DNA of 28,452 bases from a virus: the IMG/VR virus record IMGVR_UViG_3300006033_000793, positions 1-28,452 of that record; one strand, 5' to 3'. The first letter of the stretch is position 1. Every line of letters begins with the position of its first letter. The notes beneath the pieces are model-generated. The model searched no databases. It had not been told where the DNA came from and worked only from the letters and a program-made list of their open reading frames with translations. This document shows positions 547 to 26,177 of the stretch, piece by piece. Position numbers and translations under genes: made by a program.

Positions 547-1107
547 TCAGGATTTGGTTTGGCCTGAAATCCAGTCTTGAACGGTGTCTTTGATCTCTGT
601 CTCGTCGATGGCGCTGATACCCAGAAACGGGCGGGCCGGCATGTTGACTTGGTAAGCACCGCGAGTCACCCGGCGCTCTATTGCTCCTGTGTCGTTCTTG
701 CCTGCAAACAGTACCCGGCCCGCCACGCTGCGGTAGCGAACGGTACGGGACTGAGGATTTTGTGTGATGGTGCCGCCGAACTGGTGGATGGCCGCGTACG
801 GTGTGTTGGTGCCGACCTCGACGGTGTTGGCATCGACGGGTTGGTGGCGAATCCCGCTGCGCAGGTAGCCGTTCAGAGTGAGCACCTTATCCTTGTGGTA
901 CTTCTTCTGCTGGGCGTACCGGGTGTTCAGGGCTTTCCACTTATTGCCATCGGGCGCTGTTTGTGTCGTGAACCTGTTCTGCGTGGAGTCCTGCAGGTAT
1001 TGACCCAACCTTGGCATGAGATCGCCGGTATTGGCTTGGGCCATGGCCTCAAGACGTGCCTGGACTTCTGCATCATCAACATGGACTGTGAAATGTGTTC
1101 CGGCCAT
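547..1107 (-). CDS. Phage virion morphogenesis protein (Mu gpG-like)
   Basis: A 186-residue protein with features of the phage virion morphogenesis family (Mu gpG, P2 gpS-related), which acts at the head-tail interface or in tail completion. The sequence shows a short N-terminal strand (GTHFTVHVDD), a region with LGQYLQDSTQNRF, a basic stretch around KWKALNTRYAQQKK, then LNGYLRSGIRHQ, VEVGTNTPYAAIHQFGGTI and, near the C-terminus, PARPFLGIS, which is very typical of the family (AIHQFGG ... RPFLGIS). ATG at 1107 is preceded by a good ribosome site (AAGAGGA). It is the last gene of the leftward operon, downstream of the MuF gene as in Mu (F then G), and sits about 130 bases from the presumed phage end, an unusual place for a head gene. 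Confidence 0.88.
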   Translation of the reverse strand: MAGTHFTVHVDDAEVQARLEAMAQANTGDLMPRLGQYLQDSTQNRFTTQTAPDGNKWKALNTRYAQQKKYHKDKVLTLNGYLRSGIRHQPVDANTVEVGTNTPYAAIHQFGGTITQNPQSRTVRYRSVAGRVLFAGKNDTGAIERRVTRGAYQVNMPARPFLGISAIDETEIKDTVQDWISGQTKS

Positions 1108-1116
1108 GGGTTCCTC

Positions 1117-1263
1117 TTAAAATAGCGTTACTTCATCGGGTGAGACAGGCCGCACCAGGTCCACCGCTCCTACTCCCGGAAGAAGCCAGCGTGTGGTGCC
1201 GCGCTGGCTTACCTGTTTCCGCCATTTAAGGCACGCTGATACAGGCGAACGCCAATCCGCCAT
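1117..1263 (-). CDS. Small overlapping ORF between MuF and gpG genes (hypothetical, 48 aa)
   Basis: ATG at 1263 opens a 48-residue frame that overlaps the last 17 codons of the MuF-like gene in another frame and stops at 1117-1119, just before the ribosome site of the gpG-like gene. It begins MADWRSPVSACLKWRKQ and ends in VGAVDLVRPVSPDEVTLF, which looks like a genuine protein tail rather than random translation. An AAGTGAAG stretch upstream could serve for ribosome binding. I do not recognise a family. It fills the otherwise empty 100-base gap between two tightly packed head genes, which is the main argument for it. The alternative is that this frame extends the MuF protein through frameshifting, or is spurious. 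Confidence 0.4.
   Translation of the reverse strand: MADWRSPVSACLKWRKQVSQRGTTRWLLPGVGAVDLVRPVSPDEVTLF
1183..1210. other. Inverted repeat at the end of the MuF gene
   Basis: AAGCCAGCG at 1183-1191 pairs perfectly with CGCTGGCTT at 1202-1210 around a 10-base loop. The right arm overlaps the stop codon of the MuF gene (1209-1211). On the minus strand it would form a 9-bp RNA hairpin between the F- and G-like genes, without a following U-tract. It may trim or attenuate the message. Confidence 0.45.
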
Positions 1264-2468
1264 TCATCTTCACTTTGGGTCACACCTTTAAATGTGGTGA
1301 CGCCCGTCCAGCCGTCCTGGCCCAGCTCAAACACCGCCAACGCTGGTGCCTCCTGGCCTTCCACCTCGAAACGGGCCACGTACCGGCGGCGCACCACGGC
1401 TTTTTCCAACGCTTGGAGCCATTCCAGGCGCACCCAAATTTCATCGGGCTCTTGTAGCGCCATGGCCAGCAGAGCCATGAATGGGCCACGCCCGCGTTTG
1501 TCGGCCTTGATGTTGCCCTTCACGTCTGTGAACAGGTCTTTACCCACCACCAGACGCTCGCCAATGACATCGGTGAAAACCGCTGGGGTATCCAGCGTTG
1601 CGCCCAATGGATTCAGGAACGCCTGGGCGTAGTCCTGGGCAGGCAGGCCCGAGGGCAACAGTTCGGTAGCCGGTACCCGGCGCGGTGGCGGCAGCGGGTC
1701 CATCGGGCGCGTATTGGGCAGCCCATGCCCGCCAGCGCTGCCAGGAACAGGCGGATCGGGGCGCTCGGGTGGAATGGCGCTGCGCAGTCTTGCCGCACCT
1801 GGTGCGTATTCAAAGCCGGGGTCGATGCCCTCGGGCACGCGTACCGTGCGGGGGCCGTGGATGCTGCGTTGGCCGATGACACGATCCACCAGCTTCACGG
1901 GTGGCGCCTGATCAGGCCCTGACTTGCCCAAGCGTGCCAAATCGCGGGGCCACAAACCCCGCATGGTGCAGTGGCAACCCCAGCCGTTGGGCGGGTAGTG
2001 TGTTTCGAGCCACGGATGGCCGCGCTCCAGCACCAGACCGTCCCACGCCTTGTGCTCCTCACGCGGGTTTTCCACCCAGTCTTGGTGCACATACTGCCAA
2101 TACGGCGCAGCCTGCAACTGCTCGTAGCGGCCAGCGGCGTAGCTGGTGGACAAATTTGTCTCGTAAATCACTTTGCTGCGCCAATTGCGCCCGCCGTTGT
2201 AGTCCCAGCCGTGGGTGGCGACGATACGGTCAAAGTCCTTGCGGAAGTCTTCCAGCGTGCTGCCCCCGTCAATGGCTTTTTGCACCGCTTGCCGGAAGTC
2301 CGACACGATGGCGTCTCGATTCGCCCCTGCCACCACAAATGCGTAGTCGTGCTGCGAGGTGTAGATGTCGGTCCACCCGGTGGTGGGCAGATTCAGTTTG
2401 CGCCGAAAAAACGCCTCTTGTTCGGCGAACGCCAGGGAGCCATAGGCCGCCTCAGCCACCGAGACCAC
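1209..2468 (-). CDS. MuF-like head morphogenesis protein with C-terminal PBECR2-type nuclease domain
   Basis: A 419-residue, two-part protein. Residues about 40-180 match the phage Mu F / SPP1 gp7 head morphogenesis domain: note RNWRSKVIYETNLSTSYAAGRYEQ-type sequence at 94-117, AWDGLVL at 141-147 and the Cys pair in GWGCHC at 162-167. A proline-rich linker (about 232-265) leads to a separate domain at about 277-412, with DYAQAFLNPLGA, RLVVGKDLFTDVKGNIK, KRGRGPFMALLAMALQEPDEIW, RRRYVARFEVEGQ and QDGWTGVTTF. This pattern fits the phage Barnase-EndoU-ColicinE5/D-RelE-like nuclease 2 (PBECR2) domain seen at the ends of many MuF proteins. The start is GTG at 2468, overlapping the portal gene by 17 bases. 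Residues 1-270 give the structural role; nuclease activity is inferred from family resemblance only. Confidence 0.88.
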   Translation of the reverse strand: MVSVAEAAYGSLAFAEQEAFFRRKLNLPTTGWTDIYTSQHDYAFVVAGANRDAIVSDFRQAVQKAIDGGSTLEDFRKDFDRIVATHGWDYNGGRNWRSKVIYETNLSTSYAAGRYEQLQAAPYWQYVHQDWVENPREEHKAWDGLVLERGHPWLETHYPPNGWGCHCTMRGLWPRDLARLGKSGPDQAPPVKLVDRVIGQRSIHGPRTVRVPEGIDPGFEYAPGAARLRSAIPPERPDPPVPGSAGGHGLPNTRPMDPLPPPRRVPATELLPSGLPAQDYAQAFLNPLGATLDTPAVFTDVIGERLVVGKDLFTDVKGNIKADKRGRGPFMALLAMALQEPDEIWVRLEWLQALEKAVVRRRYVARFEVEGQEAPALAVFELGQDGWTGVTTFKGVTQSEDEWRIGVRLYQRALNGGNR

Positions 2469-4053
2469 CCGCTTCCTGCAGCACCTCGTAGCGCCCGGCC
2501 AGGTGCGCCACGCTCAGGGCCTGCGCCATGGCATCGGCATACTGGCTCAGGGTCATGTCGGGCAGCAGCTCGCTCAGACCGTCCCGAATTTCGTCCAACG
2601 ACTGCGCGCGCATCACCAGCGCACGCAACTGCTCAATCCACTGGTCCACCGCAGGCGCCATGGTGTTTGACATCTGGCCCGACATGGCCACAGGCACCGA
2701 CTGCGCGGCCATGGGCACGGCCGTGGCCCAAGCCACGCCAGGCGGGCGCTGAGACGACAGCGCCGCCACAACAGGCGCCCGGCTAGCGCTCTGCAGCACC
2801 GCCTGGTTGGGCTGCGGCATGGGAATACCCAGCTTCTCGTGCGCCCATTGCACTGTGGGTGCCATGCCAATGCTCACCAGCTTGGGCAGCGCATCGGCGT
2901 AAGTCTGCAAATCCTCCGGCTCCTGGGCGTTCAGCCGGAACTTGGCCGCACGGCGCAAGCCATCAGGCGCCAGGCCATTGATGGCGGCGATGGCGTACAC
3001 CACATCGCGGCTCATCGTCGAATTGAGCTGGCGCACATCGCCATCGCGCAAATCTTTGCGCACCTCGTTGTGGACATTGCCCAGTGCATTCGTGCTGCTT
3101 TTGCCGTCGGCGCCGCTGGTGAGCGTGCCGCCCAGAATCACCTTGCTCTGGTTGCGTTCGCACCAGGACATCATGAGCTCAAACGCCTTGGGGTCGCCCG
3201 TGGCCGCGTTGTGAAACTCAATCAGCATGCCCTCGGGCACGATGCCCGCCGCGTTGTGCCCCACGCCCACCAAGGCGCGCAGCAGCGTGGTCTTTTCCTT
3301 CTCACTGGCAGACGGCGGGTATTTGCCCACCCGCAACGGAATCCCGTAGATCTCCAGAAATTCAGCCAGGTCGCCCACCGCGTAGTTCTTGAACAGATAC
3401 GTCCACACCAGCTGGCGAAACAGCGACGAGCGCTCGATATAGCCCGACTTGGCCTTATGAACATGCGTGATCCAGCCGAACGGACGCAGCGGCTCACCCA
3501 TGAGGCCATCCACCACCGTGTTTGTGCGCAAACGCAACTCTTGGCGGTAGCTGCGTTGCACGGTAAACCACGACTGTGGGCGGTGCGTGATCGTTTTGGG
3601 CAGCCAAAACCCCTCCACCCGGTGCCATTCGATTTCTTGGCAGGCAAAGCCCTTGCCAATGGCGTCGGTGCTGTCGAACACCATGTCTTCCAGGTCGGGC
3701 ACCTCCGTCATCAGCTCCTGCAGCTGCTCCGCATCGCGTTTCTCCGCCGCGCTCGCGTTCACAGGTGGCACGATTTCCCAGTCCAGCACACAGGCGCGGC
3801 GACGCTTGCCCATTTCAGCGGCAATGTGCCCGTCCTTTTCCTCCATGTCTTCGAACAGCTCGGACTGCGACGTGATGTCGCCCGCTTCGGCCAGGTCCAA
3901 AATGCGCGCCAGCTTCGACGGCGTGAGGCCGCGCGTGGGGTGGCTCTGCACCTCACCCTGCAAGTGCAGCAGACGCGACGTTTGCGGCTCGTCGGCCAGG
4001 TCGGGCATTGCCATGGGTTGGCCATCGGGGCCCAGAATCATTGATGTGGCCAT
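2452..4053 (-). CDS. Phage portal protein (Mu gp29-like, DUF935)
   Basis: A 533-residue protein with the hallmarks of the Mu gp29/DUF935 portal family. This protein forms the ring at the head vertex through which DNA enters and leaves. The N-terminus holds TRGLTPSKLARILDLAEAGD, followed by DMEEKDGHIAAEMGKRRRACVLDWEI, a portal wing pattern. The middle has ITHRPQSWFTV, RSSLFRQLVWTYLFKNYAVGD and FLEIYGIPLRVGKY, and later EFHNAATGDPKAFELMMSWCERNQSKVILGGTLTS-type sequence. The Ala/Met-rich C-terminal third (from about 440) is variable in the family. The length is typical. It lies between large terminase and MuF, the order of Mu genes 28-29-30, and is separated from terminase by 46 bases. ATG at 4053 is preceded by GGAAG. 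Confidence 0.93.
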   Translation of the reverse strand: MATSMILGPDGQPMAMPDLADEPQTSRLLHLQGEVQSHPTRGLTPSKLARILDLAEAGDITSQSELFEDMEEKDGHIAAEMGKRRRACVLDWEIVPPVNASAAEKRDAEQLQELMTEVPDLEDMVFDSTDAIGKGFACQEIEWHRVEGFWLPKTITHRPQSWFTVQRSYRQELRLRTNTVVDGLMGEPLRPFGWITHVHKAKSGYIERSSLFRQLVWTYLFKNYAVGDLAEFLEIYGIPLRVGKYPPSASEKEKTTLLRALVGVGHNAAGIVPEGMLIEFHNAATGDPKAFELMMSWCERNQSKVILGGTLTSGADGKSSTNALGNVHNEVRKDLRDGDVRQLNSTMSRDVVYAIAAINGLAPDGLRRAAKFRLNAQEPEDLQTYADALPKLVSIGMAPTVQWAHEKLGIPMPQPNQAVLQSASRAPVVAALSSQRPPGVAWATAVPMAAQSVPVAMSGQMSNTMAPAVDQWIEQLRALVMRAQSLDEIRDGLSELLPDMTLSQYADAMAQALSVAHLAGRYEVLQEAGGLGG

Positions 4054-4099
4054 AGGGCTTCCAGAAAATTGGGGAACTTGAAAAGCTTGAACGCCTGGA

Positions 4100-5497
4100 C
4101 TACCAGGCGCCGTGCTCTATCAGCGGCAACGGCGAGTCATCGTCGTCGTCACGGCCATCGACCACGTTGTCAAAACCGCGCGGGGTGGTGGGCGCTGGCG
4201 TGTACTCAAACACCATGAGCCCGCCCGCTGCCGCCTGCTGCGCCAGAAAACACGCCCAAGTGCGGTCGGCGTGGCCCGTGCTGTCACTGTCGGCCACAAA
4301 ACGCGGTGTGCCCGTGGCACCCGTCACCTTCTTGAGCTTGTGAAGGTCGGCACGCAAATCGTTTCTCCCCTCGGGAATGCGCACGCGCCGGTCCTCAAAA
4401 CCCTCCTTGCCCCGTGTGGCCATCTCCAACTTCGTGGCCACATTGAACAAAACACCCTGCACCCGGCTGCTGCCATGGCGGCGCTGTGCGTCCTGCACCG
4501 GCTTCTCGCCCATGCCCGTCTGGTCCATGCAACAGCGCGTCACGTTGTAGCGGGAAAACACCTCGTCCAGCAGCATGTCCTGCTCGGCAAACAACACACG
4601 GCGGCGCTCAATGATCTCCCGCGTCCACAGCACATCACCCACCCGCTCAAACACCCAAATCACAAACAAGTCATGGCGCGCCGCAATGTCCACCCCCACG
4701 AAACAAGGGCCACCCTGGTAATGCTCAGGCCGCCCAGCCGCCTCATGCTCACAAGCCGTGATCAACTCAAAAGACAGCCACGCGCTCGCCTCATCCAGCC
4801 ACTTCAGCTCGAACTCCTGCGCCCACAAATCGTCATCGCCAGCGCCCCGGCGCAACTCCTCAATGTCACGCGGCAAGCCATCGGCCACCGCCTTGTAAAT
4901 ATCCGTCGTGTGGCGGCTCCAGCCGTCGCCGTGGCCCGTCATCAGGTCATAGAACTTATTGCCCTTGCCATTGGGCGTGCTGATCACCCGCAGCTTCAGG
5001 CCCGGCTTGGAAATCACCGGAAAAAGCGCCTTCCAGATCGCCCGACTGTCCTGGTGAAACGCAAACTCATCGAGCAACACATTCGCGCTGAAGCCGCGCG
5101 CCGTATCCGGGTTGGCGGGCAAAGCCGTGATCTTGCTGCCACCGGGCAACTCCACCTCCAACGCCTTGATGCCCGGCTCCCACTCATAGTCATAGGCCTT
5201 GAAGCCCGCCGCCAGCGCCGCCAAATGCAGCTTCACTCCCTCATTCATCGCCTCGCGCGCCTGGCGCTCGCCCCGGCTCAAAATCACCCAGCGCCGCCGC
5301 TGCCCCAGCGCTTCGGCGCGCGCGCAATCCAGCGCCAGCTCCAGCGTGCTCGTGAACGTCTTGCCACACTGCCGGGCAAACATCGCAATCTTGAACCGCG
5401 CCTCGTCAGCCACCCAGCGCTGCTGGTAGGGGTACAAGGGCAAGGCCGGGCGTGTCACCATGTTCATCGCCATCTCAAGCCGCCGGGGCAATGCCAT
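4100..5497 (-). CDS. Large terminase subunit (Mu gp28-like)
   Basis: A 465-residue packaging motor and nuclease. It cuts and pumps DNA into proheads; in Mu-like phages it cuts headful-fashion from integrated copies. The ATPase has a Walker-A-like ARQCGKT at 41-47, Walker B VLLDEF at 140-145 and a coupling-type STPNGKGN at 173-180. The nuclease half shows candidate metal-binding acidic residues D270 (in FVGVDIA), D325 (in CCMDQTGMG) and D411 (near GHADRTWA), arranged as in RNase H-fold terminase nucleases. The C-terminus ends in an acidic run (DGRDDDDDS). ATG at 5497 overlaps the gp27-like gene by 23 bases; an in-frame ATG at 5473, just after that gene's stop, is a reasonable alternative start. 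Confidence 0.93.
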   Translation of the reverse strand: MALPRRLEMAMNMVTRPALPLYPYQQRWVADEARFKIAMFARQCGKTFTSTLELALDCARAEALGQRRRWVILSRGERQAREAMNEGVKLHLAALAAGFKAYDYEWEPGIKALEVELPGGSKITALPANPDTARGFSANVLLDEFAFHQDSRAIWKALFPVISKPGLKLRVISTPNGKGNKFYDLMTGHGDGWSRHTTDIYKAVADGLPRDIEELRRGAGDDDLWAQEFELKWLDEASAWLSFELITACEHEAAGRPEHYQGGPCFVGVDIAARHDLFVIWVFERVGDVLWTREIIERRRVLFAEQDMLLDEVFSRYNVTRCCMDQTGMGEKPVQDAQRRHGSSRVQGVLFNVATKLEMATRGKEGFEDRRVRIPEGRNDLRADLHKLKKVTGATGTPRFVADSDSTGHADRTWACFLAQQAAAGGLMVFEYTPAPTTPRGFDNVVDGRDDDDDSPLPLIEHGAW

Positions 5498-6029
5498 AGG
5501 CCGCCTGAATCACAGCGGCCAGCATCGCCGGGTCCAGCTGGCCCGAGCGCCCCAGCTCGTCAAAACGGGAACGTTGCTCCTCCAGCAGCTTCTTGCGGGC
5601 TTTCTCCTCAATCGCCGCCCGCGCCTCCAGGCTGAACTTCTTGTGCGAAGCCGATGCCTTGCCAATTTCCGCCGCATTCTTGAACAGCTTGTTGACATCC
5701 ACGTCTTCGGCGTCAACGTCCGTCTCCATCAGTAAAGTCAAAATCTTTTGCTGGGTCACCCGAATCACCGCAGCGCCCAGCTTGTCCTGGTCGTCCGGCG
5801 TTGCATCCACCAGCGCACGCGCCTGCTCAGCGGCTATTTTGGACAGCGCCATCGCCCGTTCAAACGGACTGCCATAGCGCTGCAGGCCAGAAGCCGAAAT
5901 ATCCGCCCCGCGCGCCTTCAGGTCGGCTGCCAGCTGCGCGTAGTCAGAAAACCCGCGCTTGATCAGCTCAGCGTCCAGCCATGCCTTGAGCTCGGGGGGC
6001 AGCGTCAACACCTTGTTGCGTCTTGGCAT
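5475..6029 (-). CDS. Mu gp27-like packaging protein (DUF3486), probable small-terminase role
   Basis: A 184-residue protein of the DUF3486 family (Mu gp27). It begins MPRRNKVLTLPPELKAWLDA, the family's usual opening, followed by a helix-turn-helix-like stretch ELIKRGFSDYAQLAADLKARG and SASGLQRYGSPFE. Members are thought to recognise phage DNA for packaging, by analogy with small terminases; that role is inferred from gene order. The frame is open to 6101 but I place the start at ATG 6029, four bases after the preceding gene's stop, because family similarity begins there. The C-terminal half is helical and charged (RAAIEEKARKKLLEEQRSRF). It is followed directly by the large terminase. Confidence 0.85.
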   Translation of the reverse strand: MPRRNKVLTLPPELKAWLDAELIKRGFSDYAQLAADLKARGADISASGLQRYGSPFERAMALSKIAAEQARALVDATPDDQDKLGAAVIRVTQQKILTLLMETDVDAEDVDVNKLFKNAAEIGKASASHKKFSLEARAAIEEKARKKLLEEQRSRFDELGRSGQLDPAMLAAVIQAAYGIAPAA

Positions 6030-6033
6030 CGCA

Positions 6034-6354
6034 TCAGCCCTGCGTGATGCGGGGCCGGGCCACGCCAGGCTGCGCGTCAATCGTGTATTCGGCAAAGTCA
6101 ATGCCTGTGCGCGTCAGCTCCACAAACCAGTTGTCCAGCGGGTCCTTGGCAATGGTGACCATCTCCCGCGACTCCAAGTAATCCAGCTCACGCCGAACCT
6201 CCTGAAGCGTGGCATCGGGATACACCGACTGGATCACCGGCAGCATCGCCACCACATTGATGCCATTGGGCCGAGACAAGTTGGCCAAGTCCAGCAAATG
6301 CCAGCGAATCGCCTCGCGTCGGGCCTTCAAAATAGCGGGTTGGTGCATCGTCAC
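6034..6354 (-). CDS. Mu gp26-like phage protein (winged-helix-like)
   Basis: A 106-residue protein at the position of Mu gp26, between a gp25/DUF2730-like and a gp27/DUF3486-like gene. It contains AIRWHLLDLANLSRPNGIN, PVIQSVYPDATLQEVRRELDYLESREMVTI and LTRTGIDFAEYT. This has the pattern of a small winged helix: a helical bundle, then a recognition-like helix and a beta wing. I know no established biochemical role; involvement in packaging is inferred from context. It overlaps the upstream gene by four bases (ATGA). Confidence 0.75.
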   Translation of the reverse strand: MTMHQPAILKARREAIRWHLLDLANLSRPNGINVVAMLPVIQSVYPDATLQEVRRELDYLESREMVTIAKDPLDNWFVELTRTGIDFAEYTIDAQPGVARPRITQG

Positions 6355-6713
6355 AGGGAGCCTCCATTGCGCGTGTTGTCGCGCGTGCTGTCCAGCGCCC
6401 GCTCCATGCGCAGCGCAAAATTGTCAATCCGGGTGCTGATGCCGCCAATGGCTTGCACGAAGTCGTCTCGGCGCACGTAGTGCAACGGCATATCGGCCTT
6501 CATCAGCAGCAACTCGCGCTCGGCACGCTGCCAGTTCGTGGCCTCGTCCTGGTTGGCTTTTTCAATCTTTTCAAGCCTGTGGTTCTGCGCGGCAAAACCC
6601 GCTTCAATTTGCTTGATCTGCGCACTCATGACCAGCTTGGACATCGTAAAAAAACCGCTGATCAAAATCACGATCAGCGAAATCACATGCCACAGCTCCA
6701 GTTGAATCGTCAT
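6351..6713 (-). CDS. Mu gp25-like membrane-anchored coiled-coil protein (DUF2730)
   Basis: A 120-residue protein with one N-terminal transmembrane helix (about residues 8-27, WHVISLIVILISGFFTMSKL) followed by a long amphipathic helical region that is likely coiled coil (QIKQIEAGFAAQNHRLEKIE onward). This is the plan of DUF2730 proteins found just before the packaging genes of Mu-like phages. Function is not established. It overlaps the zinc-finger gene upstream by four bases and the gp26-like gene downstream by four, which implies coupled translation. Confidence 0.75.
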   Translation of the reverse strand: MTIQLELWHVISLIVILISGFFTMSKLVMSAQIKQIEAGFAAQNHRLEKIEKANQDEATNWQRAERELLLMKADMPLHYVRRDDFVQAIGGISTRIDNFALRMERALDSTRDNTRNGGSL

Positions 6714-6943
6714 AGCCTTCCCCGCCCTTTCATCTCATGCCGCGCCTGGCATGCAACGCAATACAAACAACCCGGAACCGCCACACGGCGGGCCAACGGA
6801 ATCCCATCGCCACAACTCTCGCACCACTCGGCAGAGTCAGCGGCCGTTTTGCCGGCCAGCCCGGCGCGTCGCGCCTGTTGGTACAGGGCTTCGGCCAGCA
6901 GCTCGCCCTCGCGCTCGCTGGCGCGGTCTACGTCATCGGTCAT
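6710..6943 (-). CDS. DksA/TraR-family C4 zinc-finger protein
   Basis: A 77-residue protein starting MTDDVDRASEREGELL with the C4 zinc finger CESC...CLYCVAC (spacing C-x2-C-x14-C-x2-C) and the DksA-type stretch CGDGIPLARRVAVPG. Phage TraR-like proteins bind the RNA polymerase secondary channel and mimic DksA plus ppGpp, altering host transcription; whether this one does is inferred. The frame extends upstream to 6970, which would add nine residues, but ATG 6943 gives the normal TraR N-terminus and overlaps the Rz-like gene by only 11 bases. It sits between the spanins and the packaging genes, where many Mu-like phages carry the same protein. Confidence 0.85.
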   Translation of the reverse strand: MTDDVDRASEREGELLAEALYQQARRAGLAGKTAADSAEWCESCGDGIPLARRVAVPGCLYCVACQARHEMKGRGRL

Positions 6944-7484
6944 GCGCGGGCTCCGCTGTGTGCCAGCCAATCAGAGCGGAAAGTCGGGCGCGGCAGATTT
7001 CATGCTCAGCTCGGGCGGTAGCGGCCCAATGCCCGACATCGGCATCTGTGGCAAAGGCCCCACCGGCTGCAGCAGCGCCGCCGGGGGTTTCGGGCACTGG
7101 CTCAAGTCCAGTGGGGGCGGTGTCGGAGGGCTGGTTGAGCACGCGCACAGCAGCACTGCTGAGGCAAGCGCGGCCAGTCGTGAGGCGGGCAAGTGCATGG
7201 CGATTTTCCGTTGAGAGTTGGTCAATCTGCGCCTGGCGCTGGGCCAGGTCATCGGTCAGCGCGTTGCCACGCTCTTGCGCCTGCTGCAAGAGGCGTGCAG
7301 CGGCTTGCGCTTGCAGGCGGTCTGTCTCGGCATGGGTGGTGCGCAGTTCGGCCATGTCAGCCCGCGCGCTGCTCAACTGCACCTGCAGCGGTGCCCGCGC
7401 AAAGTAGGCGCCAGCCGCCGCACCGGTGGCCAACACCACCAAGGCCAGCAGCCAGCCAGGCAATATCCGTATTGAGCTGCTCAC
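6933..7484 (-). CDS. Inner-membrane spanin subunit (Rz-like)
   Basis: A 183-residue protein with an N-terminal transmembrane helix (ILPGWLLALVVLATGAAAGA) and a long Gln/Ala/Arg-rich helical region (residues about 35-110) of coiled-coil character, as in i-spanins that bridge the inner membrane to an outer-membrane lipoprotein during the last step of lysis. I place the start at GTG 7484 because it overlaps the transglycosylase stop in a GTGA junction; the open frame runs further upstream to 7592 but that part lies inside the transglycosylase gene. The Pro/Ala-rich C-terminal third corresponds to the zone where Rz1 is encoded in another frame. Confidence 0.8.
   Translation of the reverse strand: MSSSIRILPGWLLALVVLATGAAAGAYFARAPLQVQLSSARADMAELRTTHAETDRLQAQAAARLLQQAQERGNALTDDLAQRQAQIDQLSTENRHALARLTTGRACLSSAAVRVLNQPSDTAPTGLEPVPETPGGAAAAGGAFATDADVGHWAATARAEHEICRARLSALIGWHTAEPAHDR
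6971..7198 (-). CDS. Outer-membrane spanin lipoprotein (Rz1-like), embedded in the Rz gene
   Basis: A 75-residue protein read in a different frame wholly inside the Rz-like gene. It starts MHLPASRLAALASAVLLCAC with a signal sequence and lipobox (LCAC, Cys at about residue 20), followed by a very proline-rich mature part (STSPPTPPPLDLSQCPKPPA). This is the classic Rz1 layout: short lipoprotein, Pro-rich, nested in the Rz frame. The frame is open to 7252, but ATG 7198 gives a proper lipoprotein signal. Together with the Rz-like product it should complete outer-membrane disruption after the transglycosylase has acted. Confidence 0.85.
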   Translation of the reverse strand: MHLPASRLAALASAVLLCACSTSPPTPPPLDLSQCPKPPAALLQPVGPLPQMPMSGIGPLPPELSMKSAAPDFPL

Positions 7485-8200
7485 AGCACACGCCCCCAAG
7501 CGGCGTAGCGCGGCTGCAGCACATTTAAGATGCGCAGGGGGTAACCCAGGTTCTCGGCGCAATGCGTGCGGTGGCGGCGGGCCTGGCCACACGCAGCGTC
7601 CACCTGGGCCAGCGTGGGCTGGGCCAGCCCGGTACTGGCGGCCTCCGCTCTCCAGTGGCCCAGCCCGCCGTTGTAAGCCCGCAGCGCCACATGCAAGCGC
7701 TCGCGTTCGGTGTACCTGGTGGGGGTGAGGTCAAACAAGTATTTGTCGTAACCCACCAGCGCACGCAACGCCCAGGTCGGGTTTTTGGGCTGGCAATCGG
7801 CAGCGCTCAGTTTGTGCAAGCTGCACCACCAGGTGGCCGTGCCCGGCATGAACTGAGCCATGCCCTGCGCCCCCACGCGGCTCACCGCGTCGGAGCGCCA
7901 TCCGCTTTCTTGGTGCACCTGCGCGGCCAGTGCCGAGATGGGCGCATCAAGGCCCCACTGTGTGTGGGCAGCGCGAACCAGCTCGGCGCGGTATTTGTGG
8001 GCAGCGGCGGGCACCTGGGCGTGGGCAACAGGGAAAAAACCGCCAAACGACAAAAGCGTGACTGCCACGACCACATCAAGGCTGTACATCCAAACGTTGT
8101 ATTGGCCTTTCGGCTGGCCATGTCTGGCCAGGTGGATGCCCAGGTTTAGCAACACAAGGCAAATCCAGATCGCTTGCGGCCATCCAAGTTGAAGTTGCAT
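7481..8200 (-). CDS. Phage lytic transglycosylase (endolysin) with N-terminal membrane segment
   Basis: A 239-residue protein with an SLT-type lytic transglycosylase domain at about 65-235. The likely catalytic Glu is E98 in QVHQESGWRSDAVS, followed by GAQGMAQFMPGTA and the family's AYNGG at 175-179. The first 56 residues (LGWPQAIWICLVLLNLGIHL, then ARHGQPK...YN) match my memory of a separate two-helix phage membrane protein of about 70 residues that often sits in lysis cassettes; here it is continuous with the enzyme. The second hydrophobic segment ends in PVAHA-Q, a good signal-peptidase site. An internal ATG at 8089 would give an enzyme with an ordinary signal peptide. It lies three bases after the holin and overlaps Rz by four. 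Confidence 0.9.
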   Translation of the reverse strand: MQLQLGWPQAIWICLVLLNLGIHLARHGQPKGQYNVWMYSLDVVVAVTLLSFGGFFPVAHAQVPAAAHKYRAELVRAAHTQWGLDAPISALAAQVHQESGWRSDAVSRVGAQGMAQFMPGTATWWCSLHKLSAADCQPKNPTWALRALVGYDKYLFDLTPTRYTERERLHVALRAYNGGLGHWRAEAASTGLAQPTLAQVDAACGQARRHRTHCAENLGYPLRILNVLQPRYAAWGRVL

Positions 8201-8203
8201 GGC

Positions 8204-8587
8204 TCAGGCCCCCAAGCCCATGGCCAACATGGCGCAGCCCACAATGACCGCCCGGCGCAGCATGGCGAGGCCAAACACCAGGGATGGCTCGGGCATGGCC
8301 TCCAGCGTGTAGGTGTTTGTCGGGGAATCATCGGACTGCAGGTCGGGCAGCATGTCGCTGCACAAAAACTTGTCCGGCCGGGCGTAGGGAAACAGCGAGC
8401 GGTCCAGCCAGTAACCTACCACGGCTGCCAGCGCCACCAGGCTGAGCTTGTACAGGCTCAGCGGCAGCTGCTGCGGCGCCAGCGCCCACACAGCCACCAG
8501 CAGCGCCAGCGTGATGAGCGCCCACCCCCAGAGGCGTGGGGTGCGTTGGTTGAAGGTGAGCTTGGTGGGGCGGTTCAGTGTCTGCAT
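8204..8587 (-). CDS. Putative phage holin
   Basis: A 127-residue membrane protein opening the lysis cassette. It shows two adjacent N-terminal transmembrane helices (WGWALITLALLVAVWAL and LYKLSLVALAAVVGYWL) and a third near the C-terminus (AVIVGCAMLAMGLGA), with a polar middle (SDDSPTNTYTLEAMPE). The N-terminal part, ending LDRSLFPYARPD, is the signature of the putative holins of Mu-like phages of Burkholderia and Pseudomonas. Its role would be to form membrane lesions that time lysis. It is directly followed by the transglycosylase. It could instead be an accessory antiholin; the position as first lysis gene favours holin. Confidence 0.8.
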   Translation of the reverse strand: MQTLNRPTKLTFNQRTPRLWGWALITLALLVAVWALAPQQLPLSLYKLSLVALAAVVGYWLDRSLFPYARPDKFLCSDMLPDLQSDDSPTNTYTLEAMPEPSLVFGLAMLRRAVIVGCAMLAMGLGA

Positions 8588-8650
8588 GGTGCAGCCACTG
8601 TGCCCGGGGTGAGGGTCGAGCCCTCAGGAAAGCGTTTTAGAACGTGGGAG
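8588..8650. promoter_or_regulatory. Gap between cargo and lysis genes, with dyad
   Basis: This 63-base gap separates the lower-GC cargo genes from the holin. It contains a perfect dyad, TGAGGG at 8610-8615 and CCCTCA at 8621-8626 with a 5-base spacer. A late promoter for leftward lysis and head genes would be expected here, or upstream of the cargo, but I see no convincing -35/-10 pair. The dyad could be an activator site or a weak hairpin ending the cargo transcript. Confidence 0.3.
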
Positions 8651-9859
8651 CTACGGAGAGCCAGAGAACAACCCACGCAAAAACAGCCAAGCAGGCTCTG
8701 TCATGGCCAGATAAAGTGCAGCTGCAGCAAGAAAACCAGTAACAAGAATGCATTGCACCGTCCAAAAAGCTAAACGCTGCAATTTCAGTCTGGATTCCAG
8801 CTTGGGAAAGGTTCCAGAAACCATATCCCTGATCACAGCGTACTCACTCAGTACCTTTGTTTTTTTTCGTTTGATCTCGGCTTCAAGTGCTGCCAAGGTA
8901 TGCAGCTGGTTGCGCATTACAAAATTGGCCAACACGACAAACACCAATACACCAAGCAATATCGCCGTGTTGACCCATGCTTCCTGCCGCCAGACGGCAG
9001 TCACTTTGAACTGGGTAGCGACCAGCACCGTAGCCACAGGAATACCCAGAATTTGCCCTTGCACATCTGCAAATGTTTTGTTGATGCGAGCCAATTCGTC
9101 CAGCATGTCAGCCTCCAACTGACTGCGCACTTTTTCATAGGAAAAGCTGGCCACATACAAGCGCCGTCCGTCGTCAAAGTCCTTGGCCACATCAGATAAA
9201 TGGCTCAGAAGCGATGCAAAGCGACGCGAAGGCTCCAAGCCGCCAACATGCTTGACCACGGCATCGGCCAAGATGGGCAGCAACTGTTCGTGCAGTTTGT
9301 CGCTCCCATCAAATTGACCCAGCATGGACTGAAGGGCAGGCATATTCAGACTGTCCAAGTCGGTGGTGGTGTATCGGACAGGTAGACTGACCTTGCCAGA
9401 TTTCAAAAACACCAGCTCTTCCGTGTCCTTGTCAAAGTAAGCTGCTGCCTTGGCCAGCAACGACACCAGTTCAATGACCTGCTTGTACCGAGTAAACACG
9501 GCATGGGAATTCAACTCGTCATCAGCATGAGCCAACCCATGCTCAAGCCAAAAAAAACGTGGCACCGTTGATCGGCCTCGTGGAAACTGAAGCACATCGT
9601 CGAACTTGTCTGCGAGCAAGCCTAGGCCCGTAGCCGGGTCGACCAGCTCCACCTCGACCGATGTACCCAAGGCAATACCAGCGCTCACATCCTGGCGCAG
9701 GACAATGCCGTACCGTCTCTCGTCGTTACGCACCATGTTGAATACGTCAACCAGTTCGGCCGTGTCCAGCGTCAACACACCCGTGCGGCCACTCCCGCCG
9801 CACAACTGCGTTTGGCGGTAGAGAGGCACAAGCAGGGTGTCAAACTTCGTCGGCTTCAT
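8651..9859 (-). CDS. Cargo: membrane protein with large N-terminal soluble domain, unknown function
   Basis: A 402-residue protein I do not recognise. Residues 1 to about 265 are soluble and mixed alpha/beta (FDTLLVPLYRQTQLCGGSGR at the start; WLEHGLAHADDELNSHAVFTRYKQVIELVSLL later). Three hydrophobic helices follow: about 269-286, 296-315 (VNTAILLGVLVFVVLANFVM) and 364-386 (AFWTVQCILVTGFLAAAALY), with a basic helical stretch KRKKTKVLSEYAVIRDM between the last two. The start is ATG 9859, which overlaps the NdpA-like gene by 20 bases; the frame allows a TTG start at 9880. The coding overlap suggests the two proteins are made together. Base composition is lower in GC (about 53% in one hand-counted 60-base line) than the phage genes (about 67% in another), so it looks acquired. 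A sensor or effector role at the membrane, as in exclusion or abortive systems, is a guess. Confidence 0.75.
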   Translation of the reverse strand: MKPTKFDTLLVPLYRQTQLCGGSGRTGVLTLDTAELVDVFNMVRNDERRYGIVLRQDVSAGIALGTSVEVELVDPATGLGLLADKFDDVLQFPRGRSTVPRFFWLEHGLAHADDELNSHAVFTRYKQVIELVSLLAKAAAYFDKDTEELVFLKSGKVSLPVRYTTTDLDSLNMPALQSMLGQFDGSDKLHEQLLPILADAVVKHVGGLEPSRRFASLLSHLSDVAKDFDDGRRLYVASFSYEKVRSQLEADMLDELARINKTFADVQGQILGIPVATVLVATQFKVTAVWRQEAWVNTAILLGVLVFVVLANFVMRNQLHTLAALEAEIKRKKTKVLSEYAVIRDMVSGTFPKLESRLKLQRLAFWTVQCILVTGFLAAAALYLAMTEPAWLFLRGLFSGSP

Positions 9860-10868
9860 CTGTCTGGTAGTCACGCTCAAGGTCGTCTCGCAAAGACTGC
9901 GGTAGGTTACTCAAAGTCAACGTGCCGTCTTCGCGGTTGAACAAAATCTCTCGGTTGCGCAATGCTTTGCGGTCAAAAGTCAGTTTCCAGTATTCTGCCT
10001 TTCCCTCAAACTTGACCAAAGCTTTCAGTGCGCGCTGATCTGGAACGAAACCGTCTGTGATTGCGTTGGCCGGATCAGCCATGACTGTTTTCAGCGCAAC
10101 GGGATCATCTGGCCAAACATGGTTGCTGAACGCCTCAAGCTCAACAGGCCGTTTGCCCTTGGACAAGGCCGTCAAGTAGGTATAGGCCAGGTCAAACAAG
10201 TGGTCTCGCTGATCGGGAGCAAGTGCTTGCTGATCTGCAAATGACTCCAATGCTACGACCAGTTTCTTTGACTCAGCAAGAGGAACATGAATGTCATTGC
10301 ATCCCAAGAACAGCCTGAAATAGCTTGATACGTCAGACCGGCCCTTCAGAAAACTGATGTACCGGTCACCACCTGACTGCCATGCAGTCAAATCGATTCG
10401 ACCAGCAACACGCATGTGGCTCATGTCCAAATACTGGCTCTCAATCACGTCCAGACCATTGGTGATGGCCACCCCAGCTACTTCGGTCACGATGGCGCAC
10501 AGCAGATAGTGATTGCCATCGGCTGTGATTTTTGCGAACAGTACGAATCCGCCAGTTGCAAACTGCTCCGCGCTGGCCCGAGTTTGCAAATGGCGCATCA
10601 GGTTGGCCGATAGCTCCAAAAAGTCGACACCGCCCTCTGCAAGGTGGTTTCGAAGGTGACCCTGCACGGGATATTCGTTTTCATCCGCCTCAAACCGACC
10701 AAAGCCTTTGCCAACCTGTTCGCTGTACTGCTTGTAAATAAGGTCAATGAGCCTCTGAACCTGGTTGTTGATCGGTAGTAGCTGTGGCCGTAGTTCAAGC
10801 GTGGCGATGCGTTGGCCTGATTCTTTGATGAGTTTGTGAACAACCGCATGGGTGATTTCGTTTGGCAT
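9840..10868 (-). CDS. Cargo: nucleoid-associated protein of the YejK/NdpA family
   Basis: A 342-residue protein matching the 37-kDa nucleoid-associated protein family (E. coli YejK/NdpA, about 335 residues). It begins with ITHAVVHKLIKE, contains an RLIDLIYKQYSE helix, a GGFVLFAKI strand motif at about 106-114, and the family's ISFLKGRSDVSSYFRLFLGC at about 171-190. The C-terminal half has KALVKFEGKAEYWKLTFDRK followed by an acidic tail. YejK coats nucleoid DNA and has been linked to topoisomerases; family members also turn up in mobile elements. ATG 10868 has an ideal ribosome site (TAAGGAGG five bases upstream), far stronger than its neighbours'. The product may silence or mark DNA, or sense incoming DNA for the membrane partner encoded next to it; those roles are inferred. 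Confidence 0.8.
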   Translation of the reverse strand: MPNEITHAVVHKLIKESGQRIATLELRPQLLPINNQVQRLIDLIYKQYSEQVGKGFGRFEADENEYPVQGHLRNHLAEGGVDFLELSANLMRHLQTRASAEQFATGGFVLFAKITADGNHYLLCAIVTEVAGVAITNGLDVIESQYLDMSHMRVAGRIDLTAWQSGGDRYISFLKGRSDVSSYFRLFLGCNDIHVPLAESKKLVVALESFADQQALAPDQRDHLFDLAYTYLTALSKGKRPVELEAFSNHVWPDDPVALKTVMADPANAITDGFVPDQRALKALVKFEGKAEYWKLTFDRKALRNREILFNREDGTLTLSNLPQSLRDDLERDYQTDEADEV

Positions 10869-10950
10869 TTTTCCTCCTTAAAAATCTGTTCGATCGCTTG
10901 CGATCCTTGAGCCGTGCAACGGAACGCGGGGTGTTGGCTTCAGGTGACCT
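10869..10950. promoter_or_regulatory. Intergenic region ahead of the NdpA-like gene, with palindrome
   Basis: The 82-base gap carries the strong ribosome site of the NdpA-like gene (CCTCCTTA on the plus strand, 10873-10880) and a palindrome, GATCGC at 10892-10897 and GCGATC at 10900-10905 with two bases between. Such a tight palindrome suits a protein-binding site more than an RNA hairpin. It is the only sizeable gap inside the cargo block, so the NdpA/membrane pair may have its own promoter here. I could not identify the promoter elements. Confidence 0.35.
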
Positions 10951-11763
10951 TCAAGGAAATGGTGCCTGGACAGGAAGTCCGCCTTGGCTTTCAACCTCAG
11001 CCATCAGCGCCTTGTATTTGCGCATCGCGGCCCATGAGTCCAGCTTCTTGCGGAACTGGTTACGCTTGTACGCGACGTATGATTTTTCTCCACCCGAGTA
11101 ACGCCCCTTGGGCAAGCGGCCCGCAATGCTTTCTTCAAGCAAGTGGGCCGTTTTGCGAAGCACTGCCGCTGCATCGGTTACACGACCGCCTGCCAGCAAC
11201 AGCTTGACCCACTCATACACCCGACCGGTGTGAATCATCGAATCCACTTCGTTGGAAAAGTACGCAAGTTCGTCAGCAGGGGCTTGCATATCACCCCGGG
11301 CTACCCGCAATTCGAAGTACCGCTCTGCGTACCGGACTTCATCTGGATCACCCGCCAGCGCCTGTTGAAAGCCTGTGATCGCTGTGTCAACGTCACCCCT
11401 TTCCATGGCCAAGCTGGCCAGGCAGAAATCACGGTAGTGGCTCGGGTGCGAGACAAATTCGTCAAACGGAACCCCTGCACGCACGTAGTCCAGCATTGGA
11501 AAGAAGTGGTCCACCACCCGCTTTCCGGTTGAAAGCGCCTCTTGTTCCTGCGCAACCGTTCGCCACATGCGACGAAACTCGTACAGATTTTCGCCTCCGG
11601 TCTGTTCTACCAAACCTGTTTTGCTCATGGCTACTTGAAACCCCAAGGCCTGCCATTGATCCAGCGGTCGAACCCGCGCGTAGTGAGCCAAGTACGGGCG
11701 GTGGCGGGTATCTGTCAAGGCATATTTAAAGTTGGGTGACAAGAGCAACATAGTCATGCTCAT
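10951..11763 (-). CDS. Cargo: soluble protein with possible TPR-like stretch, unknown function
   Basis: A 270-residue protein starting MSMTMLLLSPNFKYALTDTR. The open frame continues upstream to 11973, but that part runs through the preceding membrane-protein gene. ATG 11763 shares one base with that gene's stop (TGATG), so I take it as the start. Residues about 133-175 (FCLASLAMERGDVDTAITGF, then QQALAGDPDE and YAERYFELRVARGD) have the helix-turn-helix rhythm and Ala/Gly/Pro positions of a tetratricopeptide repeat. A second, similar helical stretch follows at about 190-225 (YEWVKLLLAGGRVTDAAAVL). The C-terminus is basic and helical (YKRNQFRKKLDSWAAMRKYK). No catalytic motif is visible. TPR-like proteins usually mediate protein contacts, so it may be an adaptor for the cargo system. 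Confidence 0.65.
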   Translation of the reverse strand: MSMTMLLLSPNFKYALTDTRHRPYLAHYARVRPLDQWQALGFQVAMSKTGLVEQTGGENLYEFRRMWRTVAQEQEALSTGKRVVDHFFPMLDYVRAGVPFDEFVSHPSHYRDFCLASLAMERGDVDTAITGFQQALAGDPDEVRYAERYFELRVARGDMQAPADELAYFSNEVDSMIHTGRVYEWVKLLLAGGRVTDAAAVLRKTAHLLEESIAGRLPKGRYSGGEKSYVAYKRNQFRKKLDSWAAMRKYKALMAEVESQGGLPVQAPFP

Positions 11764-12101
11764 CAGGCAGCACGCTGCTGTTTGGTCATACGAACCGGCT
11801 TCAACACCCCCCACTCCAGCAGCGCCAGGCTCAGCACCAACTGCGTGGTGAGCAGCACCAGGGGCGTAGACCATTGGTTGGTGGTGGTGTGAGCCACAGC
11901 GAACTGCACCAGCCACCAGGCGCTCCAGATGGCTGACGGCACCAGCACCGCCACAAACAGCCAGTGGCTCCACTGCAGCCGCTGTAAGGGTGGGCGCCTG
12001 GGCGCGCGCCAGATGACGTTGATCACAAAGGTGACGGGTGCGTTGTTGGTGATCTGATTGGCAATCTGGCCCGTGACATGGCCAATTTCCGGTTTTTCCA
12101 T
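11763..12101 (-). CDS. Cargo: small two-helix membrane protein
   Basis: A 112-residue protein with an N-terminal polar motif, IGHVTGQIANQITNN, a basic stretch (WRAPRRPPLQRLQ), then two transmembrane helices (LFVAVLVPSAIWSAWWLVQF and LVLLTTQLVLSLALLEWGVL) and a basic C-terminus (RMTKQQRAA), giving a cytoplasmic N- and C-terminus by the positive-inside rule. It lies directly downstream of the repressor and one base ahead of the TPR-like gene. The Gly/Asn/Gln motif resembles the C-terminal motif of the adjacent repressor. Small membrane proteins beside phage repressors often act in superinfection exclusion; that is inference from position. I do not recognise a named family. Confidence 0.7.
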   Translation of the reverse strand: MEKPEIGHVTGQIANQITNNAPVTFVINVIWRAPRRPPLQRLQWSHWLFVAVLVPSAIWSAWWLVQFAVAHTTTNQWSTPLVLLTTQLVLSLALLEWGVLKPVRMTKQQRAA

Positions 12102-12117
12102 CCCTGAAAAACTCCCT

Positions 12118-12137
12118 AAAAAAGCTGCAAAAAGCAG
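12118..12137 (-). terminator. Weak intrinsic terminator-like element after the repressor gene
   Basis: Read on the minus strand, a short stem CTGC-TTTTT-GCAG (12125-12128 with 12134-12137) is followed by C and six T residues (12118-12123). The stem is only four base pairs, so termination would be partial at best and the cargo genes could be transcribed by read-through from the repressor promoter. Confidence 0.35.
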
Positions 12138-12159
12138 TGGGCTGATGACCTGAAGTGAT

Positions 12160-12774
12160 CTATTTGCGTGGTGTTGATGTCACGCCGAAATGGCTGGTGA
12201 AGTGCAGTTCCTTTTCGTTCGTCTGGTTACCCTGCACCACCTGGCCATGCACCGTGTTGATACCAAGCGGTGGTGGGGTGGATGCCCGCCCCGCCAGATG
12301 CCTTGTCTCAATTTCCTCGGCACGCTCAGCACGGTGCAGCTTCACCACCAGCTGCAGGGCCAGTCGAAGGGTGTCGTCTGAGCAGGCGGCCAGCACGTCC
12401 TTGATGGCTTCATAGGTGCCCGCACGGCTGGCGTTGCCAGCGGCCATCGTGGTGCCTGCGGCGTCCAGCAGGCTGCGCAGTCTTTCTTTTTCTGCGGGTG
12501 TGGTGTTCAGCGCCTGCGTGAAGGCCTGCGCCCGCTCTTGCGCCTGGCGCTGGTGCGCCGTGAGCGTGCCACCGGTGAGCACGTACTCCACATCAATGCC
12601 CAGCTCGGGGCGCTGCTGGGCTAGGGCGCGGAGTTCCCGGTCTGGGAAAGACCCGCGTTTCTTCCTCTCGCTGAACGCTGTTTTCGAGAGCCCCAGTGCG
12701 GCGGCGACCTCTTGATCCTTGCTGACGCGCAAAAAAGGCTTGAGTCTGTCCAGGCAATCTGAAAATAAGTTCAC
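12160..12774 (-). CDS. Phage immunity repressor with CI-type helix-turn-helix
   Basis: A 204-residue protein with a CI repressor helix-turn-helix domain at about 5-68: DQEVAAALGLSKTAFSERKKR, RELRALAQQRPELGIDVEYVLTG. The long helical region that follows (about 75-165) probably mediates oligomerisation, and the C-terminus carries INTVHGQVVQGNQTN. No S24 peptidase motif is present, so induction by RecA-type self-cleavage is not expected. The start is GTG at 12774 with AAGGGG seven bases upstream. It is divergent from the early operon across an 82-base control region, the standard position of the lysogeny repressor. The plus-strand gene at 13713 encodes a paralogue of its DNA-binding domain. Confidence 0.85.
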   Translation of the reverse strand: MNLFSDCLDRLKPFLRVSKDQEVAAALGLSKTAFSERKKRGSFPDRELRALAQQRPELGIDVEYVLTGGTLTAHQRQAQERAQAFTQALNTTPAEKERLRSLLDAAGTTMAAGNASRAGTYEAIKDVLAACSDDTLRLALQLVVKLHRAERAEEIETRHLAGRASTPPPLGINTVHGQVVQGNQTNEKELHFTSHFGVTSTPRK

Positions 12775-12839
12775 GAAAACCCCTTACTATTCCACAAAAT
12801 ATGGATTAAAGTTCACACACAGATTCACCGATGAACTTT
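12767..12839. promoter_or_regulatory. Divergent early control region with repeated AAGTTCAC operator half-sites
   Basis: The half-site AAGTTCAC occurs at 12767-12774 (overlapping the repressor start codon) and again at 12809-12816, 42 bases apart. AAAGTTCA at 12808-12815 forms a perfect inverted repeat with TGAACTTT at 12832-12839. The region is clearly AT-richer than its flanks and separates the leftward repressor from the rightward early operon, so it should contain both promoters. These repeats are the best candidates for repressor or gp16-like operators. I could not fix the promoter hexamers with confidence. Confidence 0.6.
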
Positions 12840-12856
12840 CTAAGAGGTTACGACAA

Positions 12857-13048
12857 ATGGAAACGCCTGAACAGATCAAGCAACGATTTAAACAAGAGGG
12901 TTTGACCTTCACGCAGTGGGCAAAAGACCACGGGTATCCGGTCAACAAGGTGCACCGCGTCATGGCGGGCATCGAGAAAGGCCACTACGGCAAAGCGCAC
13001 GAGATCGCCGTGAAGCTGGGCCTCAAGCCCGGCCCAAGCGCCCAGTAA
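12857..13048 (+). CDS. Small DNA-binding regulator, BcepMu gp16 family
   Basis: A 63-residue protein, METPEQIKQRFKQEGLTFTQ at its start, with a compact helix-turn-helix (TFTQWAKDHGYPVNKVHRVM) followed by AGIEKGHYGKAHEIAVKLGLK. This matches the phage-associated BcepMu gp16 family, whose members end in the pattern KGxYGxAHxIAVxLGLK. It is the first gene of the rightward operon and takes the place of Ner in Mu or Cro in lambda; a role as early repressor or switch protein is inferred from that. The open frame extends upstream to 12719 but crosses the control region. ATG 12857 has AAGAGGT at 12842-12848. Confidence 0.85.
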   Translation: METPEQIKQRFKQEGLTFTQWAKDHGYPVNKVHRVMAGIEKGHYGKAHEIAVKLGLKPGPSAQ

Positions 13049-13050
13049 GC

Positions 13051-13095
13051 CGGGTATCAGACCAGTGATTTCTCACGCCCCTGACCTGATACCCG
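13051..13095. promoter_or_regulatory. 10-bp perfect inverted repeat upstream of the Rha-like gene
   Basis: CGGGTATCAG at 13051-13060 is mirrored by CTGATACCCG at 13086-13095 with 25 bases between. A second dyad, CAACCAG (13105-13111) and CTGGTTG (13137-13143), follows. The 116-base gap between the gp16-like and Rha-like genes is large for this compact operon. The dyads may be operators or an RNA structure controlling Rha expression. No U-tract follows. Confidence 0.45.
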
Positions 13096-13164
13096 CCCCA
13101 CAACCAACCAGCTCACAAGCCAGTTACCTGACTCCACTGGTTGAACCAACCGAGGCATTTTGAC

Positions 13165-13716
13165 ATGAACCCAACCGCCCAACTCACCCTGGCCCTGCCC
13201 AACCCGCTGGCCGCCCGCGAGGTGCTGTTTTTGAGCACCGACGGCCAGCCCTTCACCACCAGCCGCGCCGTGGCCGAGCGCTTTGGCAAGCTGCACAAAA
13301 ACGTGTTGCGCGACATTGAAAACCTGCTGGCCGACATGCCTGATCCAGCTTTCGGACGGCTCAATTTTGAGCCGTCCTCCTACCTGAATGAGCAGCGCAA
13401 AGCCCAGCCCGAATATCGCCTGACCCACGACGGCTTTGCCTTTCTGGCCATGCGCTTCACGGGCCGCGATGCCATGGCCTGGCAGATCGCTTTCCTTCAG
13501 GCCTTCAACGCCATGGAGGCCGAACTGCACCGCCTGCAAGACGCCAAGGCCCACGCGCTGGACGTGCTGCGCCCCTGCCTGCAACCGGTGATTGACGGCG
13601 AGCGCGTGGGTGCCAACCGCGCCCTGATTGCCCGCTACATGGGCAAAAGCCTGGGCGCTGTGAGCTACCACCGCCGCGTGGCCCGCCGTTTGGGTTTGCT
13701 GGGAGCTGCGGCATGA
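13165..13716 (+). CDS. Rha-family phage regulatory protein
   Basis: A 183-residue protein with the Rha domain at about 22-115: SRAVAERFGKLHKNVLRDIE, FEPSSYLNEQRKAQPEYRLT, then DGFAFLAMRFTGRDAMAWQI and FLQAFNAMEAEL, a close match to the family's H(K/S)xVLRDIxxL...YxxxxGRxxPxYxLTxDGFxxLxMxFTGxxAxxxKxxFIxAFNxME pattern. Rha proteins are lambdoid-phage-type regulators, first described as interfering with infection of hosts lacking IHF. The C-terminal 65 residues include a helix-turn-helix-like stretch (RALIARYMGKSLGAVSYHRR). ATG 13165 is chosen over TTG 13141 because of the GAGG about 10 bases upstream. The next gene overlaps by four bases. Confidence 0.85.
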   Translation: MNPTAQLTLALPNPLAAREVLFLSTDGQPFTTSRAVAERFGKLHKNVLRDIENLLADMPDPAFGRLNFEPSSYLNEQRKAQPEYRLTHDGFAFLAMRFTGRDAMAWQIAFLQAFNAMEAELHRLQDAKAHALDVLRPCLQPVIDGERVGANRALIARYMGKSLGAVSYHRRVARRLGLLGAAA

Positions 13717-14494: not shown

Positions 14495-14531
14495 ACCGAA
14501 TTCCCTCAACAACACAAACCGAGAACCGAAC

Positions 14532-15844: not shown

Positions 15845-15848
15845 CACC

Positions 15849-18703: not shown

Positions 18704-18706
18704 GCC

Positions 18707-22002: not shown

Positions 22003-22004
22003 CC

Positions 22005-22250: not shown

Positions 22251-22257
22251 TGCAACC

Positions 22258-23180: not shown

Positions 23181-23207
23181 TGTCAGGAAAAATGATCAGC
23201 TACACAC

Positions 23208-24475: not shown

Positions 24476-24510
24476 GCCAACACACCCACCACCCCACAAC
24501 GGACCAGCCC

Positions 24511-24921: not shown

Positions 24922-24954
24922 CCACCCCACCCACCATCACAAGAAGAGCGAACC

Positions 24955-26156: not shown

Positions 26157-26177
26157 TACAGCCTGAGCCCGCCCACC

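What the first reader, a model, noticed from the sequence alone, without database searches (positions are those of the whole stretch)
1209..2045. Toxin-like PBECR2 domain on the MuF head protein
Residues about 277-412 form a domain distinct from the head morphogenesis part, after a Pro-rich linker, with KRGRGPF, PDEIW, RRYVARFEV and GWTGVTTF motifs of the PBECR2 nuclease-like family. MuF proteins enter the virion, so the domain could be injected with phage DNA and act on host or rival RNA or DNA. No immunity gene is evident next to it, unless the 48-residue ORF overlapping its 3' end serves.
Basis: partly seen in the sequence, partly recalled or inferred. Interest (0 to 1): 0.6.

Follow-up and report, generated by a model that had tools for sequence, protein, structure and literature searches.

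The report
Phage head protein with dead nuclease domain

Summary
Observation confirmed. The gene lies on the minus strand (1209-2468, 419 aa), between portal and neck gene G of a Mu-like phage: Phage_Mu_F at residues 57-169, PBECR2 (PF18810, E=1e-28) at residues 283-411, window 1236-1622.

The toxin reading is not supported. PBECR homologues that carry the family's catalytic His have it in 8 of 8 sequences; the window's clade has it in 0 of 45, and no His column occurs in 107 orthologues. The modelled helix that bears it shrinks to a short turn. No immunity gene exists: the next gene is G, as it also is beside His-bearing copies. The domain is under purifying selection but dispensable: some Burkholderiales phages carry a 71%-identical MuF cut off before it. 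MuF-PBECR fusions, and an inactive one in Mu, were published in 2017 (PMC5512222). Best reading: a minor head protein with a probably non-catalytic PBECR2 domain.

The 48-residue "ORF" is not a gene: it covers a ~100-nt leader of G with strong covariation (75 double-changed cells against 20 in shuffles), absent from Rfam. That leader is the most novel thing here.

The parts
1209..2468 (-). Mu gpF-like minor head protein (MuF), 419 aa
   Evidence: PF04233 and phrog_220 'minor head protein and DNA pilot' E=7e-86; between portal and G
1962..2300 (-). Phage_Mu_F (PF04233) domain, residues 57-169
   Evidence: 46.9 bits against cut-off 29.6
1641..1778 (-). Pro-rich linker, about residues 231-276
   Evidence: sequence; low pLDDT 57-74 around residues 221-250
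1236..1622 (-). PBECR2 domain, residues 283-411, without the helix His
   Evidence: PF18810 1e-28; AF2 pLDDT mostly 79-97; 0/45 His at the catalytic column
2452..4053 (-). Portal protein (Portal_Mu, PF06074)
   Evidence: E=8.8e-96
547..1107 (-). Gene G, Phage_tail_S / tail completion or Neck1 protein; occupies the place where an immunity gene would be expected
   Evidence: PF05069 2e-32, phrog_26
1108..1214 (-). Conserved structured leader of G (two covarying hairpins, then a Shine-Dalgarno-like AGAGGA); candidate cis-acting RNA
   Evidence: covariance model hit 102 bits; 75 double-changed cells against 20.3 in shuffles and 5-12 when slid; no Rfam match
1117..1263 (-).
   Evidence: stops or frameshifts in relatives; overlies the structured leader

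Best explanation
This is the gpF/MuF minor head protein of a Mu-like transposable phage, with a C-terminal PBECR2 domain that lacks the histidine and most of the helix that its His-bearing relatives have for RNA cleavage. Most likely MuF sits at the portal end of the head (known for SPP1 gp7; inferred here), and the PBECR2 part is a kept, fast-evolving, non-essential accessory domain that acts, if at all, by binding nucleic acid or another protein rather than by cutting RNA. Shown here: domain, gene order, missing His, missing immunity gene, purifying selection, natural absence in close relatives. Inferred: lack of catalysis, virion location, binding role.
For: PF18810 and PF04233 on one protein; portal-F-G order. 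Catalytic column: His 8/8 in His-type, 0/45 in this clade; the two groups fall on either side of one 100/100 branch. Helix 30-39 of the His-type model corresponds to only residues 310-313 in the window model. No His column in 107 orthologues; median dN/dS 0.38 for PBECR2 against 0.24 for MuF. G follows directly beside His-type copies too (L139, L144, L145, L147, L148, L150, L156). MuF cut off at residue 234-235 in L077 and L110, and matching only to residue 230 in L109 and L111, with G starting 4 nt later in L077, L109 and L110, and no PBECR2 anywhere in the two tested records G002 and G006. Iyer et al. 2017 call the PBECR domain of Mu gp30 inactive and suggest RNA binding (PMC5512222).
Against: Core residues shared with His-type copies stay invariant (Pro341, Glu343, Trp345, Arg404, Gly406; Tyr363 nearly so), and Thr391 is kept in 36/45, so some chemistry could remain; BECR nucleases without a catalytic His exist (RelE, colicin E5; own knowledge). 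Domain net charge is -3, which does not favour simple nucleic-acid binding. Virion location was not tested. The His column depends on an alignment of 20-31% identity across the two groups.
Confidence: 0.68

Rival explanations
1. Active phage-borne endoRNase with an Arg/Glu/Tyr-based (RelE-like) active site, packaged with MuF and injected to cut host, rival-phage or CRISPR RNA, needing no immunity because it is made late and sequestered in heads.
For: Iyer et al. describe one of six PBECR families with Arg in place of His (PMC5512222). Arg325, Arg327, Glu343, Tyr363, Arg404 are present. Purifying selection.
Against: Arg327 kept in only 33/45 and absent in orthologues such as L022, L054, L069; the helix is eroded; some phages do without the domain.
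Confidence: 0.17
2. Polymorphic MuF toxin with a partner immunity gene, in the sense of Jamet et al. 2017.
For: MuF plus C-terminal nuclease-family domain; a Stenotrophomonas phage with 57% identity over residues 3-246 has a different C-terminus.
Against: Next gene is G (186 aa), not a small unknown ORF; the 48-aa ORF is not conserved; extra genes found between F and G in L034, L132 and L061 differ from each other and two lie on the opposite strand; catalytic His absent; the architecture is constant across 107 orthologues.
Confidence: 0.05
3. Purely structural C-terminal extension of the portal-vertex or internal head protein, with the old nuclease fold reused as a packing module.
For: Conserved core without the catalytic helix; faster but purified evolution alongside MuF.
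Against: Phages without the domain exist and keep an intact downstream G gene, so assembly does not need it in all relatives.
Confidence: 0.1

Closest known systems
MuF-PBECR fusion proteins of Mu-like phages (Iyer et al. 2017, PMC5512222), including Mu gp30
   Same: Same order portal-F-G, same MuF plus C-terminal PBECR architecture; the authors also judged the Mu domain inactive
   Different: Mu gp30 itself does not reach PF18810 here, only PF18819 MuF_C below cut-off, and profile comparison gave no link
F protein of Pseudomonas phage JBD25 and kin (NC_027992)
   Same: 55% identical over residues 11-416 including PBECR2
   Different: No F-G gap and no structured leader found; Arg327 region replaced
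Rhodobacter phage RcapMu RcapMu37 (YP_004934680)
   Same: MuF plus PBECR2, 37% identical over 2-416
   Different: Longer N-terminus as annotated (493 aa), deeper branch of the domain tree
MuF polymorphic toxins (Jamet et al. 2017, PMC5576092)
   Same: MuF protein with nuclease-family C-terminus in a temperate-type phage
   Different: No small immunity ORF, active-site His absent
Colicin D catalytic domain (1tfo)
   Same: Top structural neighbour of the His-type PBECR2 model, Z 4.8, rmsd 3.2, 82 aligned
   Different: Not recovered for the window's own model; the His is not kept here

Membership tests
PBECR2 (PF18810) | Profile score above the gathering threshold | tested here: met
   100.4 bits against 27.1, whole profile 1-120
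PBECR/BECR nuclease (active) | Catalytic His in the N-terminal helix | tested here: not met
   0/45 in the clade against 8/8 in His-type; no His in residues 277-419
PBECR/BECR nuclease (active) | C-terminal Ser/Thr in the late strand | tested here: inconclusive
   Ser of the His-type DGSLxWN motif falls in a gap; Thr391 nearby kept in 36/45
PBECR/BECR nuclease (active) | BECR fold | tested here: inconclusive
   Window model: no significant match. His-type model: colicin D top at Z 4.8, with two CDI toxins and one toxin-antitoxin chain among the top eight
MuF polymorphic toxin | MuF domain followed by a recognised toxin-family domain | tested here: met
   PF04233 then PF18810
MuF polymorphic toxin | Small immunity ORF directly downstream | tested here: not met
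   Next gene is G; 48-aa ORF not conserved
MuF polymorphic toxin | Delivered in virions and toxic | not testable with these tools
   needs proteomics and expression
Mu gpF/gp30 orthologue | Gene between Mu-type portal and G (Phage_tail_S) | tested here: met
   PF06074, PF04233, PF05069 in order
Structured RNA element | Covarying base pairs beyond shuffles and slid controls | tested here: met
   16 pairs with double changes, 75 cells against 20.3 shuffled and 5-12 slid; the alignment was fitted to the structure
Structured RNA element | Match to a described Rfam family | tested here: not met
   no match at E<=1

The most novel reading that the evidence does not exclude
A much less likely extension (about 0.04) is that the PBECR2 domain encoded just upstream binds it to regulate G.
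Probability: 0.62. Interest if true: 0.45.

Novelty: new member of a known kind. Interest (0 to 1): 0.32.

Why it matters
It warns against reading every MuF-PBECR2 fusion as an injected toxin: in the large Mu-like clade tested the catalytic His is absent, no immunity gene exists, and some phages do without the domain. It makes the 2017 proposal of an inactive, perhaps RNA-binding, PBECR domain testable in a tractable phage. The covarying leader of G is a separate, apparently undescribed control element in phage late operons.

Tried and rejected
Direct sequence search of solved structures with the protein and both domain profiles: nothing significant. Profile comparison of PBECR2 with the C-termini of Mu, B3, JBD67 and phiSHP3 F proteins: no relation detected, only four sequences on one side. 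PADLOC: no defence match. The idea that the F-G element is the Mu-type central gyrase site was set aside: in the window it lies about 1.1 kb from the contig end and not centrally, and GU pairs favour a sense-strand RNA. Single-sequence folding of the element is no more stable than shuffles (z 0.01), so only the covariation supports it. The JBD30 structure paper gave nothing on F for the terms searched. A link between PBECR2 and the element was considered: the phages without PBECR2 (L110, L077) also lack the element, but one deletion would remove both.

Full report
What is there. On the minus strand, window 1209-2468 encodes 419 aa between a Mu-type portal (2452-4053) and gene G (547-1107). Pfam gives Phage_Mu_F at residues 57-169 and PBECR2 at residues 283-411 with E=1e-28. 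PHROGs gives 'minor head protein and DNA pilot' at 7e-86 over residues 7-411. The transposase, the late activator and the head maturation protease elsewhere in the window show a Mu-like phage.

Relatives. 80 viral loci, 31 bacterial loci and 264 phage records hold relatives; most of the first two sets match over the whole length. In a survey of 398 genomes of one phylum, 31 had a PF18810 match. His-bearing PBECR2 copies occur in the same MuF architecture (L144, L145, L147, L148, L150), and once with MuF and PBECR2 as two overlapping frames followed by G (L139).

Active site. Aligning 53 domains and splitting them: the column that is His in 8/8 His-type sequences is never His in the 45 others. 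Those 45 share Phe313, Pro341, Glu343, Trp345, Tyr363, Arg404 and Gly406 without exception. Across 107 orthologues no column is His in more than 30%. The two sets are separated by one branch with 100/100 support; which state is ancestral is not known. AlphaFold2 models agree in the order of elements, but the His-bearing helix (30-39 in the His-type model) is reduced to residues 310-313 in the window. The His-type model's best structural neighbour is colicin D (1tfo, Z 4.8, rmsd 3.2, 82 residues), with two CDI toxins and one toxin-antitoxin chain in the top eight; these Z values are weak, and the window's own model gave nothing usable. Arg325/Arg327 are present in the window, and Iyer et al. 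mention one family with Arg for His; Arg327 is kept in 33/45.

Selection and dispensability. Median dN/dS by Nei-Gojobori is 0.24 for MuF and 0.38 for PBECR2 over 1328 non-independent pairs. In Acidovorax sp. 210-6 (L110) and viral contig L077 a 71%-identical MuF stops at residue 234-235 and G begins 4 nt later; the L110 genome and the L077 record contain no PBECR2. L109 and L111 match the same way only to residue 230. Chromohalobacter phage YPCBV-1 has a 263-aa MuF without the domain. So the domain is kept by selection where present but is not needed for assembly in all relatives.

Immunity gene. None. The 48-aa frame matches relatives mainly in its second half, where stops and a frame change interrupt it. 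Genes inserted between F and G in L034, L132 and L061 are unlike each other by inspection, and the best candidates in L034 and L132 lie on the opposite strand.

What the gap holds instead. Eight F-G gaps fold to a common two-hairpin structure. A covariance model found it in about 40 loci, ending 0-20 nt before G in nearly all, including L034 and L061 where 388 and 707 nt separate it from F. L003 has two copies in tandem. In 29 distinct sequences 16 of 24 pairs show double changes, 75 cells against 20.3 in shuffles and 5-12 when partners are slid; the alignment was fitted to the model, which inflates this, but the slid controls are far lower. GU pairs on the sense strand favour RNA. Rfam has no match. 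In genome surveys it appears in 5 of 301 family genomes and 4 of 398 phylum genomes; two copies (L167, L170) lie in host-like surroundings, L170 next to an F remnant.

Literature. Iyer et al. 2017 (PMC5512222) described PBECR domains, their fusion to MuF, and an inactive one in Mu gp30; they suggested RNA binding for that one and RNase action for intact orthologues. Jamet et al. 2017 (PMC5576092) described MuF polymorphic toxins, usually with a small downstream ORF. The present case is a new member of the first kind and lacks a defining trait of the second.

Verdict. Real domain, right family, toxin reading unsupported; ordinary as a find, with a side discovery of a structured leader that deserves its own follow-up.

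Noticed in passing
window 1108-1214 (-): Conserved two-hairpin leader of gene G with strong covariation, no Rfam match, tandem copies in L003 (5242-5345 and 5349-5454).
   Followed up: yes
window 547-12774 (-) and 12719-28305 (+): Split late region: packaging genes to G on the minus strand near the contig end, protease-capsid-tail on the plus strand after the late activator. Same layout in the L077 record; contiguous F-G-protease order in the L003 record.
   Followed up: partly
L110 about 4213-4857: In Acidovorax sp. 210-6 host-like genes begin soon after G, which suggests that the phage end lies directly behind G in this layout.
   Followed up: no
L121:2647-3771: Acidovorax sp. Leaf78: remnant of F with the start of PBECR2 fused in frame to an N6/N4 DNA methylase (PF01555), probably by deletion.
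   Followed up: no
L034:3254-3535, L132:1163-1489, L061:5320-5955: Accessory ORFs of different sequence inserted between F and the G leader, as if the gap were an insertion site for morons.
   Followed up: partly
L042 and L104: MuF part dS 1.01 but PBECR2 part dS 0.18 between the two, a sign of recombination inside the gene.
   Followed up: no
L167:1501-1606, L170:1501-1606: Copies of the G leader in host surroundings (beside a NYN-like gene and an aldehyde dehydrogenase; beside an F remnant and an argS-like gene), probably prophage remnants.
   Followed up: partly
window 8651-10868 (-): Two genes between lysis genes and repressor: phrog_5023 (unknown) and a phrog_3767 nucleoid-associated protein.
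   Followed up: no
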